NCBI RefSeq assembly: GCF_018069895.1
Contig: NZ_JAGQDH010000002.1
Span: forward strand, 186,001-250,000
DNA length: 64,000 nucleotides
From: Roseovarius autotrophicus
GTDB lineage: Bacteria; Pseudomonadota; Alphaproteobacteria; Rhodobacterales; Rhodobacteraceae
Direction of reading: 5' to 3'
Below, piece after piece: positions 14,175-19,701 of this stretch (positions are counted from its first letter, which is position 1; each line of letters begins with the position of its first letter). A program made the position numbers and the translations under genes. The notes beneath the pieces were generated by a model. The model was not told where the DNA came from, did no database searches, and worked only from the letters and a program-made list of their open reading frames with translations.

Positions 14175-15848
14175 TCAGTGCGCGGGCTGCTTGTCCCAGT
14201 CCTCGCGCTTGGGGAGCGTTTCGAACGTGTGCTCGGGCGGCGGTGAGGGCAACGTCCATTCCAGCGTGTCGGCATATTCGTTCCACGGGTTGGGCCGCGT
14301 CTCGCGCGCGCCGCGCAGCAGCGCATAGATCACCACGCCGAAGAAGAACACGAAGCTGGCGAAGGAGATGAAAGCCCCGATCGACGACCAGTAATTCCAG
14401 ACAGCAAAGGCCTCGGGATAGTCGATATAGCGGCGCGGCATGCCCTGACGACCCAGAAAGTGCTGCGGGAAGAAGGTCAGGTTGGCACCGATGAACATCG
14501 CCCAGAAATGCAGCTTGCCCATCCATTCGGGGATCATGCGCCCGGTCATCTTGGGGAAGTAGAAATAGATCCCCGCAAAGATCGCGAACACCGCGCCCAG
14601 GCTCATCACATAGTGGAAATGCGCCACGACATAATAGGTGTCGTGATAGGCGCGGTCCACGGCGGCCTGGCTGAGGACAATGCCGGTGACGCCGCCCACG
14701 GTGAACAGGAACAGGAACCCGAAGGCCCAGAGCATCGGCGTGCGGAACTCGATCGAGCCGCCCCACATGGTGGCGATCCAGGAGAACACCTTGACCCCGG
14801 TGGGGACCGCGATGACCATCGTGGCCAGCATGAAATAGCTTTGCTGGGTGAGGCTCATGCCGACCGTATACATGTGGTGCGCCCAGACGATGAAGCCCAG
14901 GAACCCGATGGCGATCATCGCCCAGACCATCGGCAGATAGCCGAAGATCGGTTTGCGCGAGAAGGTCGCGATCACATGGCTGATGATGCCGAAGCCGGGG
15001 ATGATGATGATATATACTTCCGGGTGGCCAAAGAACCACAGGATGTGCTGATAGAGGATCGGATCACCGCCACCCGCCGGATCAAAGAAGGTGGTGCCGA
15101 AATTGCGGTCGGTGAGCAGCATGGTGATCGCCCCCGCCAAAACCGGCAGCGCCAGCAGGATCATCCAGGCGGTAACGAAAATCGACCACGAGAACAGCGG
15201 CACCTTGAACAGCGTCATGCCCGGCGCGCGCATGTTGAGGAAGGTCGTGATCATGTTGATCGCGCCCAGGATCGAGCTTGCCCCCGAGACGTGGACGGCA
15301 AAGATCGCCAGATCCATCGACATGCCACCCTCGGTGGTGGAGAGCGGCGGATAGAGCACCCAGCCCACACCCGAGCCAAGCTGCCCGTTGCCACCCGGTG
15401 CCAACAGCGAGGCCACGCCAAGCGAGGTGCCGGCCACGAACAGCCAGTAGGACAGGTTGTTCATGCGCGGAAACGCCATGTCCGGCGCGCCGATCTGGAG
15501 CGGCATGAAGTAGTTGCCGAATCCGCCGAACAGCGCCGGAATCACCACGAAGAACATCATCAGCACGCCATGATAGGTGATCATGACGTTCCACAGATGC
15601 CCGTTGGGGGTGCAGTCGGCGACATCGGAGGCAATGAAACGCGCGCCTTCCATGCACATGTATTGCACGCCCGGCTCCATCAACTCCATCCGCATGTAGA
15701 CGGTGAAGAGAACCGAGATGAGACCGACGATCGCCGATGTGATCAGGTAGAGGATACCGATATCCTTGTGGTTCGTGGACATGAACCACCGGGTGAAGAA
15801 CCCGCGCTGATCTTCGTGCTCGTGGCCGTGAATGGCTGCGTCTGCCAT
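14175..15848 (-). CDS. ctaD: Cytochrome c oxidase subunit I (aa3 type)
   Basis: A 557-residue, 12-helix catalytic subunit of the aa3 oxidase, which carries heme a and the heme a3-CuB centre and pumps protons while reducing oxygen. The [18 protein letters not shown] segment holds the crosslinked His-Tyr pair, WAHHMYTVG holds two CuB histidines, and HFHYVMSLG holds the heme a3 and heme a ligands. The NxxxxxxxN D-channel ([25 protein letters not shown]) is also seen. It stands alone; ctaC/ctaE are not adjacent, while ctaA for heme A lies at 46.9 kb. An FNR-type box lies 108 bp upstream. Confidence 0.98.
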
Positions 15849-16296
15849 TGGATGCCTCCTGCTGGTGTTGACTACGGGCGGGAAAACCTGACTCTCACAC
15901 CCACGTGATCTTTTCGGGTTTTAGAATGTCCCGGGGGGGGCGGCAATGCGCGAATTTGATGCAGATCAAAGAATTTTGTCGCACCCCTGAAGGGCACGGG
16001 GCGGCAAACCGGCCTGTCCGCCATGCCGGGCCCTTCTCTTTGCAGGGCAGGGGCACGGGATCTTGTGCGTGCGGGCGGCGACGATGATTCGCCGTTCACC
16101 GCCCCAAGGCCGGGTGCGGCCACAGCGGTGGTTCGCGCTGATGGCACCAGGGCGCGCGCCTGTCGCTGCGAATGCGGCCCCTTGCGGCTGGCGGATCGGA
16201 CGGCCGCCGGGCCGGTGCCGAAAATCGAGGAAGATTCTGCAAAATCCCTCTTGCGCCCCGCCGCGGATTTTCATACTCACCCTCCACGCCAAGCAA
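15849..16296. other. Intergenic region between ctaD and tRNA-Glu
   Basis: About 450 bp without a supported gene. It holds the ctaD promoter region near 15918-15946 (minus strand TTGCCG, then a TCTAAAA stretch), an FNR-type palindrome at 15956-15969 and a G8 run at 15933-15940. At the right end CATACT at 16272-16277 with TTGCGC upstream is a possible promoter for the tRNA. Several short frames exist, but none has a ribosome site or family resemblance. Confidence 0.6.
15956..15969. promoter_or_regulatory. FNR/FnrL-type box upstream of ctaD
   Basis: TTGATGCAGATCAA is a perfect match to the FNR consensus TTGAT-N4-ATCAA. It lies 108 bp before the ctaD start, just upstream of a plausible minus-strand promoter. 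FnrL in Rhodobacteraceae senses oxygen through an iron-sulfur cluster; control of the low-affinity aa3 oxidase by oxygen would make sense. The direction of the effect cannot be read from position alone. Confidence 0.65.
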
Positions 16297-17835: not shown

Positions 17836-18522
17836 ATGGCACAAGTCAAGAAGATACTTCTGGTAGACGATGACGACGACCTGCGCGAGGCGCTGGGCGA
17901 ACAGCTTGTCATGACCGAGGATTTCGACGTGTTCGAGGCTGGCTCGGGCACAGGCGCGATGGCCAAGATCAAGGACATGATCTACGATCTCGTGATCCTT
18001 GATGTGGGCCTGCCCGATACCGACGGGCGCGAGTTGTGTCGGCTGATGCGCAAGCAGGGGGTCAAGTCACCCATCCTGATGCTCACCGGCCATGATGGCG
18101 ACGCCGACACGATTCTCGGGCTTGATGCGGGCGCGAACGACTATATCACCAAGCCGTTCAAGTTTCCGGTGCTGCTCGCGCGCATCCGCGCGCAACTGCG
18201 CCAGCACGAACAATCCGAGGACGCGGTGTTCCAGCTTGGCCCCTACACGTTCAAGCCCGCGATGAAGATGCTGGTGACCGAGGACGAGCGCAAGGTGCGC
18301 CTGACCGAGAAGGAAACCAATATCCTCAAGTTTCTCTATCGTGCGCCAGAAGGTGTGGTGCCGCGCGATGTGCTGTTGCACGAGGTCTGGGGCTATAACG
18401 CGGGGGTGACGACCCACACGCTCGAGACCCATATCTACCGCCTGCGCCAGAAGATCGAGCCCGATCCCGGCAACGCTCGCCTTCTGGTCACCGAATCGGG
18501 TGGTTATCGCCTTGTGGTTTAA
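17836..18522 (+). CDS. OmpR/PhoB-family response regulator (CenR-like)
   Basis: A 228-residue two-component regulator. The receiver domain (residues 5-120) has the acidic pocket DDDDD from residue 11, phosphoacceptor Asp56 in LDVGLPD, and the conserved Lys in YITKPF. The C-terminal winged-helix domain ends with the expected [35 protein letters not shown]. The wording LREALGEQL and [28 protein letters not shown] recalls alphaproteobacterial CenR, an essential envelope regulator, but I hold that assignment only moderately. No histidine kinase gene is adjacent. The start at 17836 follows AGGAACG. Confidence 0.93.
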
Positions 18523-18535
18523 TAGTCACGCTCGC

Positions 18536-18549
18536 TTGACCAAGATCAA
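18536..18549 (+). promoter_or_regulatory. FNR-type box for a candidate small RNA
   Basis: TTGACCAAGATCAA matches TTGAT-N4-ATCAA at 9 of 10 positions. Its centre (18542.5) lies 41.5 bp before 18584, the geometry of a class II FNR-activated promoter, and TAATGT at 18572-18577 is correctly placed for a -10 element. It follows the response regulator stop by 14 bp. No protein gene lies downstream on this strand before the terminator. Confidence 0.5.
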
Positions 18550-18583
18550 AGTCGTATCTGCGTTTCAGGATTAATGTGGTATC

Positions 18584-18652
18584 GTTCACTTACGGTTATA
18601 GTGAACCTCCCTGTTGGACTGGCCCCGGCATCGCCCGGGGCCTTTTTCTTTT
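18584..18652 (+). ncRNA. Candidate FNR-regulated small RNA
   Basis: The predicted transcript of about 67-69 nt has three parts. A 5' hairpin has a perfect 7-bp stem (GTTCACT 18584-18590 with AGTGAAC 18600-18606). A single-stranded CCTCCCTGTTGGACT linker follows. A strong terminator hairpin with a T-rich tail ends the transcript. The CCUCCC stretch is complementary to Shine-Dalgarno sequences, a feature of several alphaproteobacterial trans-acting sRNAs. An FNR-type box sits at the expected distance from the predicted 5' end. It could instead be the 3' UTR of the response regulator mRNA; the upstream promoter elements argue for an independent RNA, not proven. Confidence 0.45.
18621..18652 (+). 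terminator. Strong rho-independent terminator
   Basis: Stem GGCCCCGG (18621-18628) pairs with CCGGGGCC (18635-18642), followed by TTTTTCTTTT. It is oriented for plus-strand transcription and ends the candidate sRNA and any read-through from the response regulator gene. It lacks a T-tract on the minus strand, so it does not serve speB. Confidence 0.92.
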
Positions 18653-18659
18653 CAAGGGC

Positions 18660-19619
18660 TTACCTTGCCGCAGCGTAAAGCGCGAGCAGATCGCAGGCGA
18701 GGGTCGCTGCCGCGAGCGCGGTGATTTCCGAGACGTCATAGGCGGGGGCCACCTCGACCACGTCCATACCCTTGAGTGCTACGCCCTCCAGCCCGCGCAG
18801 GATCTCCTGCGCCTGAAAGGTGGTTAGCCCGCCGATGACCGGCGTGCCGGTGCCCGGTGCCATCGACGGGTCAAGCGCGTCGATGTCGAAGGTCAGGTAA
18901 CAGGGCCGGTCGCCCACGATGGCGCGCACCTTTGCCGCCACCGCCTCGGGGCCGCTCAGGTGGACCTCGCGCGCGTCGATCACATGCACGCCCAAGGGGT
19001 CGGGGTTGTGGGTGCGGATGCCCACCTGCACCGAGGCCTCCGGGATCACCAGCCCCTCGCGCACCGCGTGCCAGAGCATCGTGCCGTGGTCGATGCGGCC
19101 CGGCTCGTCCTCCCAGGTGTCGGAATGCGCGTCGATCTGGATAAGGGCGAGGGGGCCATGTTTTTCGGCATGGGCCTTCAGCAGGGGCCAGGTGATGAAG
19201 TGATCGCCCCCCAGCGTCAGAAGTGCTGTGTCGGTGGCCAGCACGTCGCGGGCGGCCTGCGCGATGGTCTCTGGGATCTGCGCGGGATAGCCGTGGTCGA
19301 AAAAGCAATCGCCGTAATCGACGATGGACAGCCGCTCGAACGGATCAAAGGCCCAGGGCCAGGGCGCGGACCAGGCGATATGCGCAGACGCCGCGCGGAC
19401 CGCGCGCGGGCCAAGGCGTGTGCCCGACCGCCCCGACACCGACATGTCGAACGGCACGCCCATCACCGCCACATCGGCCCCGCCCAGATCCTTGGTATAG
19501 CGGCGACGCATGAAGCTGAGGGCGCCGGCATAGGCGGGTTCGGCAAGGGTGCCGCGGGTCTCGGGCCGGGTAAAGGCAAGGTCGGTGGCGGTCGGGTTGA
19601 CGCTGGTGGTGTCGGTCAT
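18660..19619 (-). CDS. speB: Agmatinase / ureohydrolase family
   Basis: A 319-residue ureohydrolase with a binuclear manganese site: His140 in GGDHF, then Asp163, His165 and Asp167 in DAHSDTW, and the DIDALDP block near residue 245. Agmatinase makes putrescine and urea from agmatine. Close relatives acting on guanidinobutyrate share all these residues, so the substrate is inferred. The start at 19619 follows AAAAGGACACCC, a good ribosome site, and gives MTDTTSVNPTATDLAF. It is divergent from xth and converges on the candidate sRNA. Confidence 0.93.
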   Translation of the reverse strand: MTDTTSVNPTATDLAFTRPETRGTLAEPAYAGALSFMRRRYTKDLGGADVAVMGVPFDMSVSGRSGTRLGPRAVRAASAHIAWSAPWPWAFDPFERLSIVDYGDCFFDHGYPAQIPETIAQAARDVLATDTALLTLGGDHFITWPLLKAHAEKHGPLALIQIDAHSDTWEDEPGRIDHGTMLWHAVREGLVIPEASVQVGIRTHNPDPLGVHVIDAREVHLSGPEAVAAKVRAIVGDRPCYLTFDIDALDPSMAPGTGTPVIGGLTTFQAQEILRGLEGVALKGMDVVEVAPAYDVSEITALAAATLACDLLALYAAAR

Positions 19620-19701
19620 GGGTGTCCTTTTCGGAAATGTGTGTGCCCGGAGAGTGCCTCCGGCTTCGACGGGTGTAAACCTCAAGCGCGGCGTGGTGCC
19701 C

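What the first reader, a model, noticed from the sequence alone, without database searches (positions are those of the whole stretch)
18536..18652. Candidate FNR-activated small RNA with anti-Shine-Dalgarno linker
Between the response regulator stop and speB, a TTGACCAAGATCAA box (9/10 to FNR) lies exactly 41.5 bp before the start of a perfect hairpin, with TAATGT in the -10 place. The predicted 67-69-nt RNA has a 5' hairpin, a single-stranded CCUCCC linker and a strong terminator with U-tail: the layout of an Hfq-type, oxygen-regulated trans-acting sRNA. FnrL-controlled sRNAs are known in Rhodobacter (PcrZ), but I do not recognise this one.
Basis: partly seen in the sequence, partly recalled or inferred. 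Interest (0 to 1): 0.75.

Follow-up and report, generated by a model that had tools for sequence, protein, structure and literature searches.

The report
SorX small RNA with FNR-type promoter
Behind its usual regulator gene, this bacterium carries a relative of SorX, a small RNA already known from oxidative-stress defence in Rhodobacter, and in front of it lies a conserved site through which the oxygen sensor FnrL would likely switch the RNA on when oxygen runs low.

Summary
In detail: an exact FNR box (18536-18549), a -10-like TAATGT 22 nt further on, a 5' hairpin, a CCUCCC linker and a terminator lie between an OmpR-type regulator gene and convergent speB. The RNA is not new. It matches Rfam SorX (RF02784) over the full model, E 1e-9, though 4 bits under the gathering score. 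It lies behind an OmpR-type gene, as SorX does in R. sphaeroides; 27 of 30 loci tested at that position, this copy among the misses, pass the score. The hairpin covaries strongly. The FNR part gains support: the box recurs in 35 of 86 SorX loci (16 of 59 among those fetched without the box in the query), with TAnnnT exactly 22 nt after it (class II, -41.5) far more often than in shuffles. The genome encodes FnrL. FnrL ChIP-seq in R. sphaeroides had already put a site at RSs2461 (= SorX), with no effect established (PMC4263372). New is the comparative evidence that part of the family, this genome included, likely gives SorX its own FnrL promoter besides 3'-UTR processing. Transcription, oxygen response and targets are untested.

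The parts
17836..18522 (+). OmpR-type response regulator gene (228 aa); SorX lies in its 3' region; likely counterpart of ompR-1/RSP_0847
   Evidence: ORF; NCBIfam best hits are OmpR/PhoB-type models below their cut-offs; same gene upstream in 28 of 30 loci
18536..18549 (+). FNR-type box TTGACCAAGATCAA, centre 18542.5
   Evidence: exact match to TTGAYN4RTCAA; box in 35 of 86 SorX loci, 16 of 59 fetched without it in the query
18572..18577 (+). -10-like TAATGT, 22 nt after the box (class II, -41.5)
   Evidence: TAnnnT at this offset in 22 of 32 box copies, 11 of 20 non-redundant vs 0.57 shuffled
18580..18585 (+). rival -10-like TATCGT (TG before it), 30 nt after the box
   Evidence: TAnnnT at this offset in 14 of 32 box copies, 5 of 20 non-redundant
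18584..18652 (+). predicted SorX RNA, 69 nt; Rfam match spans 18579-18647
   Evidence: RF02784 SorX 42.6 bits, E 1e-9, model 1-73 of 73, gathering 46.6
18584..18606 (+). 5' hairpin, 7 bp, loop TACGGTTAT
   Evidence: fold; stem of 6 bp or more in 76 of 90 relatives vs 7 of 90 shuffled; covariation in 40 relatives
18606..18620 (+). linker CCTCCCTGTTGGACT (its first C also closes the hairpin), predicted pairing region
   Evidence: unpaired in the centroid fold apart from the first base; exact in 29 of 30 loci fetched by whole-region similarity; in the SorX and SorY consensus
18621..18652 (+). intrinsic terminator with T tail
18660..19625 (-). speB (agmatinase), convergent neighbour, not part of the sRNA
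   Evidence: NCBIfam agmatinase over cut-off; next to SorX in 6 of 30 loci

Best explanation
This is a homologue, and by gene position the likely orthologue, of the known small RNA SorX, and it is likely transcribed from its own class-II promoter that FnrL would activate at low oxygen. Shown: the sequence matches the SorX covariance model over its full length and lies behind the same kind of gene; hairpin, linker and terminator are conserved; an FNR box with TAnnnT 22 nt after it recurs in front of SorX in several genera. Inferred: FnrL binds at -41.5 and starts an RNA of about 69 nt near 18584, while read-through from the regulator gene plus RNase E cleavage may also yield SorX, as reported in R. 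sphaeroides. Inferred: the CCUCCC linker pairs with ribosome-binding sites and blocks translation, with the polyamine-uptake gene potA as precedent.
For: SorX match of the window copy; 27 of 30 loci tested behind this gene reach the SorX gathering score (11 of 12, 16 of 18). Covariation 7 of 7 pairs, score 0.624 vs 0.266 shuffled, 0 of 500. Exact box in 28 of 90 copies behind this gene vs 1 of 87 elsewhere; in copies fetched by the core alone 11 of 63, p 3e-4. TAnnnT at 22 nt: 11 of 20 non-redundant vs 0.57; core-only 6 of 10, 0 of 5000 shuffles. Box centre 40.5-43.5 nt before SorX model position 1 in 19 of 22 other loci. FnrL gene, 462 bits against a cut-off of 300. FnrL ChIP-seq site at RSs2461 in R. 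sphaeroides (PMC4263372 passages).
Against: The window copy is 4 bits under the SorX gathering score, and SorY-like copies elsewhere score 46.6-50.8 on the same model, above the window copy. The -10 is weak and has a rival 8 bp downstream that would start the RNA inside the stem. 51 of 86 loci lack the box. Measured to SorX model position 1 the window box is at -36.5, not -41.5. SorX in R. sphaeroides is reported as co-transcribed with RSP_0847 from an RpoHI/II promoter and processed, and the ChIP-seq paper could not establish an effect of FnrL on it. CrpK binds FnrL-like sites in R. sphaeroides. No target was found beyond chance.
Confidence: 0.72

Rival explanations
1. SorX here is made only by processing of the regulator mRNA's 3' end, as described in R. 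sphaeroides, and the box is a relic or is bound without effect.
For: Processing is the published route. 51 of 86 loci have no box and 10 of these have only 34-50 nt between gene end and linker. The window's -10 is weak.
Against: Box and -10 keep a fixed spacing across genera although the box-to-linker distance varies (56-70 nt for most); relics would drift.
Confidence: 0.17
2. The box is used by another Crp/Fnr-family regulator (CrpK-like or Nnr/Dnr-like), so the signal is not simply oxygen.
For: CrpK and FnrL share sites in R. sphaeroides (PMC4263372 passages). The own genome has 7 matches over the HTH_Crp_2 cut-off.
Against: FnrL is the one clear equivalog of the two tested, and FnrL ChIP-seq hit RSs2461, while in the CrpK table passage seen only RSs0019 of the two sRNAs is listed.
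Confidence: 0.08
3. An ordinary terminator of the regulator gene, with a chance FNR-like match and no sRNA.
For: The gene needs a terminator; shuffled sequence gives 0.8 terminator-like sites on average.
Against: Covariation of the 5' hairpin, conserved linker, SorX match.
Confidence: 0.02

Closest known systems
SorX (RSs2461, Rfam RF02784), Rhodobacter sphaeroides
   Same: Position behind an OmpR-type gene; 5' hairpin, ACCUCCCUGUUGGAC linker, terminator; 69 nt predicted here, 75 nt there; an FnrL ChIP-seq site at its putative promoter
   Different: Described there as processed from the mRNA by an unknown nuclease and RNase E; here a conserved class-II FNR promoter is predicted. The window copy scores 42.6 bits against a gathering score of 46.6
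SorY (Rfam RF02651), Rhodobacter sphaeroides
   Same: Same linker ACCUCCCUGUUGGACU and a terminator
   Different: Different 5' stem and gene position; the window copy scores 29.6 on SorY vs 42.6 on SorX. The own genome's second copy (L180) scores 49.8 on SorY and 46.6 on SorX
FnrS (E. coli) and PcrZ (R. sphaeroides)
   Same: Works like: sRNAs under FNR or FnrL control (FnrS in a passage of PMC4263372; FnrL control of PcrZ is recalled)
   Different: Neither name appears among the 6 Rfam matches up to E 5 in 18400-18800; PMC4263372 says RSs2461 shares no sequence similarity with FnrS

Membership tests
SorX (RF02784) | Full-length match to the sequence-plus-structure model | tested here: met
   42.6 bits, E 1e-9, positions 1-73 of 73. 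The curated gathering score, 46.6, is not reached by this copy; 27 of 30 loci tested at this position (this copy's locus L001 included as a miss) reach it
SorX (RF02784) | Lies behind an OmpR-type response regulator gene | tested here: met
   Sequence identity of that gene with RSP_0847 not tested: R. sphaeroides DNA was not fetched
SorX (RF02784) | Made by RNase E processing, Hfq-dependent | not testable with these tools
   Reported for R. sphaeroides (PMC6238624, PMC9438474 passages)
SorX (RF02784) | Represses potA | tested here: inconclusive
   Linker duplexes with candidate starts of the three potA-like genes over cut-off: -8.8 to -19.1 kcal/mol, against a median of -14.0 and best of -27.4 for 56 window gene starts; true start codons unknown
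SorY (RF02651) | Match to the SorY model at its gathering score (111) | tested here: not met
   29.6 bits
FNR/FnrL class-II promoter | Box centred at -41.5 with a -10 element | tested here: met
   By sequence only: TAnnnT 22 nt after the box, here and in relatives; start site not mapped
FNR/FnrL class-II promoter | FnrL present in the genome | tested here: met
   NF045989 equivalog, 462 bits against 300
FNR/FnrL class-II promoter | Activation by FNR/FnrL at low oxygen | not testable with these tools

The most novel reading that the evidence does not exclude
Across Rhodobacteraceae SorX switches between two ways of being made: cut from the end of a stress-regulator mRNA, or transcribed on its own from an FnrL class-II promoter gained or lost several times. 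The same RNA, with the pairing linker it shares with SorY, would thus be wired alternately to oxidative stress and to low oxygen.
Probability: 0.55. Interest if true: 0.65.

Novelty: new variant of a known kind. Interest (0 to 1): 0.5.

Why it matters
SorX serves in reviews as an example of a 3'-UTR-derived sRNA of oxidative-stress defence. If many relatives drive it from an FnrL promoter, polyamine uptake (its known target) or other targets would come under oxygen control too. The 2014 FnrL ChIP-seq site at this sRNA, left without an established effect, would gain a conserved box and a predicted start that one 5'-end mapping or reporter can test. It would also show how a processed 3'-UTR sRNA gains a promoter of its own.

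Tried and rejected
Target search. AGTCCAACAGGGAGG with up to 3 mismatches in the own genome: 57 sites vs 65 for the reversed control, the two sRNA genes included. Exact AACAGGGAGG: 5 sites vs 2 for the reversed control: two are the sRNA genes, two stand 6 nt before an ATG (a TRAP-type binding protein, L209, and an indolepyruvate-oxidoreductase-like protein, L210; names from my reading of the translations), one does not. In 84 same-genus genomes CCAACAGGGAGGN{4,9}ATG is mostly the sRNA genes' own complement; what remains, 7 rows by eye, equals the 7 rows of the permuted control. L209 and L210 starts give -23.3 and -23.7 kcal/mol, within the range of 56 window starts (best -27.4). No regulon is claimed.

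StsR/UpsM. I first suspected StsR and a pairing with the mraZ leader: no match with up to 3 mismatches there, and Rfam then gave SorX and SorY. Rejected.

Plain sigma-70 promoter with TTGACC as -35: none found. Rejected.

Pseudoknot. CCCG or CCCC before the hairpin could pair with CGGG or GGGG in its loop: four or more pairs in 53 of 90 copies, against a mean of 16 (maximum 24) with the flank shuffled and 31 (maximum 37) with flanks swapped. The window copy is not among the 53, so this is not part of the claim.

Bias noted. L001-L030 were fetched with the whole intergenic region, box included, so core-only counts are given apart. L061-L176 were fetched by the exact 15-mer, so its invariance in alignment A2 is partly by construction; the fair figure is 29 of 30 loci. 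The 88 'other' copies include a few chance matches in unrelated bacteria, and the one exact box among 87 of them belongs to a third copy behind the same regulator gene (L102). The covariation alignment used 40 of the 90 copies, picked for a common layout, without the window copy. Copies with 2 or more mismatches to the 15-mer (e.g. L007) are not. 5 of 86 genes were too short for the tree, which is a quick one. One search left out L018, which ends inside the terminator.

Full report
What is there. Between the stop of an OmpR-type response regulator gene and the convergent agmatinase gene speB lie TTGACCAAGATCAA (18536-18549), TAATGT (18572-18577), a 7-bp hairpin (18584-18606), the linker CCTCCCTGTTGGACT (18606-18620) and a GC-rich terminator with T tail (18621-18652). 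The predicted 69-nt RNA folds better than its shuffles, z -3.24. The box pattern occurs twice in the window against 0.11 expected.

What the RNA is. At gathering scores Rfam reports only a tRNA in the window. With the permissive search the segment matches SorX, RF02784, over the whole model: 42.6 bits, E 1e-9, gathering score 46.6; SorY, RF02651, follows at 29.6 bits. Loci in the same gene position pass the SorX score: 11 of 12 given (the miss is L001, this copy) and 16 of 18 (misses L023, L144). The model does not separate the two RNAs cleanly: six SorY-like copies from other positions score 46.6-50.8 on SorX, and the four of them scored on SorY reach 49.8-56.4 there, whereas this copy prefers SorX by 13 bits. 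Passages of PMC8625941, PMC5502269, PMC6238624, PMC3320616 and PMC9438474 say that SorX (RSs2461) is a 75-nt, Hfq-dependent sRNA cut from the 3' end of the OmpR-type gene RSP_0847, induced by singlet oxygen and superoxide, which lowers spermidine uptake through potA. The original paper (Peng 2016) is not held; only its title was seen, in reference lists. R. sphaeroides DNA was not fetched, so orthology of the regulator genes rests on family and position.

Conservation. The intergenic region finds a match in 73 of 84 genomes of the genus; 28 of 30 fetched loci lie behind the same gene. One genus contig equals a Roseovarius aestuariivivens contig in length (398,230) and in the sequence around the sRNA, so the genus is most likely Roseovarius. 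The linker plus terminator start (up to 3 mismatches) occurs in 257 of 395 genomes of the family. Of 179 copies in loci L001-L176, 91 lie behind this gene. A stem of 6 bp or more abuts the linker in 76 of 90 such copies against 7 of 90 shuffled. In 40 of the 90, chosen for a common layout and without the window copy, 7 of 7 pairs show changes on both sides, 95.2% of cells pair, and the covariation score is 0.624 against 0.266 shuffled, 0 of 500.

The promoter. The 10-position FNR pattern is exact in 28 of 90 copies behind this gene and in 1 of 87 elsewhere. Since L001-L030 were fetched with the box in the query (19 of those 27 loci have it), the fair figures are from the core-only fetch: 11 of 63 copies exact (p 3e-4) and 16 of 59 loci with at most one mismatch. 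In the 32 copies with a box 50-80 nt before the linker, TAnnnT stands exactly 22 nt after the box in 22; non-redundantly in 11 of 20 against 0.57 by shuffling, maximum 5 of 2000 rounds. Core-only it is 9 of 13, non-redundantly 6 of 10, reached in 0 of 5000 shuffles. A second peak, 30 nt after the box, holds 14 of 32 (5 of 20 non-redundant) and is present in the window too. Measured to SorX model position 1, the box centre lies at -41.5 in 9 and between -40.5 and -43.5 in 19 of 22 other loci. In the window it is -36.5 to that position and -41.5 to the first paired base. On a quick tree of 81 of the 86 regulator genes the box label needs 16 changes, at least 6 forced by well supported branches, against 26 for shuffled labels: the box is clustered, yet was gained or lost several times. 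The genome encodes FnrL.

What was known of this control. PMC4263372 (passages) reports FnrL ChIP-seq sites in the putative promoters of RSs0019 and RSs2461 and says the effect could not be established. The listings of my searches for SorX/FnrL/sRNA, D. shibae/FnrL/sRNA, Roseovarius/FNR/sRNA and SorX/SorY (partly capped) showed no title or abstract start that reports a SorX promoter of its own. Most subscription papers are not held.

How it likely works. FnrL, active at low oxygen, would bind at -41.5 and start SorX directly, in addition to any SorX cut from the regulator mRNA. The linker, unpaired in the fold apart from its first base, would pair with ribosome-binding sites. Targets were sought and not found beyond chance, so this second half rests on the R. 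sphaeroides precedent.

Against. The window copy is under the Rfam gathering score; its -10 is weak, with a rival 8 bp downstream that would start the RNA inside the stem; 51 of 86 loci have no box, 10 of them with the gene end only 34-50 nt from the linker, too little for such a promoter, so processing presumably makes the RNA there; a CrpK-like protein could use the site.

Verdict. A real, conserved sRNA gene, already known as SorX, with a likely FnrL promoter of its own that part of the family shares: a new variant of a known kind.

Noticed in passing
window 15956-15969: The only other exact FNR box of the window lies 107 nt before the start of the minus-strand ORF 14175-15848, by my reading of its translation cytochrome c oxidase subunit I; a plausible second FnrL target.
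   Followed up: partly
L180, G000:C83:89670-89684 (own genome): The own genome's second copy of the linker is a SorY-like sRNA (SorY 49.8 bits, gathering 111; SorX 46.6) between genes I read as gltA and gnd; no FNR box seen by eye.
   Followed up: partly
L069, L113, L130, L149: SorX/SorY-type copies outside the regulator locus lie behind a LysR-type gene in these 4 loci, before a purL-like gene in L069 and L149 (names from my reading), and many of that class carry CTTGA 72-74 nt before the linker (35 occurrences in 88 copies), perhaps an RpoH-type promoter.
   Followed up: partly
relatives, e.g. L050, L104, L031: The 5' domain may form a compact pseudoknot: CCCG or CCCC before the stem with CGGG or GGGG in its loop, 53 of 90 copies vs at most 37 with swapped flanks; not in the window copy.
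   Followed up: partly
L047, L102, L140, L157: Tandem SorX-like copies behind the same regulator gene; the box of L140 stands before its second copy.
   Followed up: no
window 18550-18560 and relatives: The stretch just after the box (AGTCGTATCTG here, AGTGATACTCTG-like in Ruegeria) is also conserved; TA at offset 5 in 23 of 32 box copies. Function unknown.
   Followed up: no
L001-L005, L007: SorX, which limits polyamine uptake in R. sphaeroides, has the agmatinase gene speB as neighbour in 6 of 30 genus loci.
   Followed up: no
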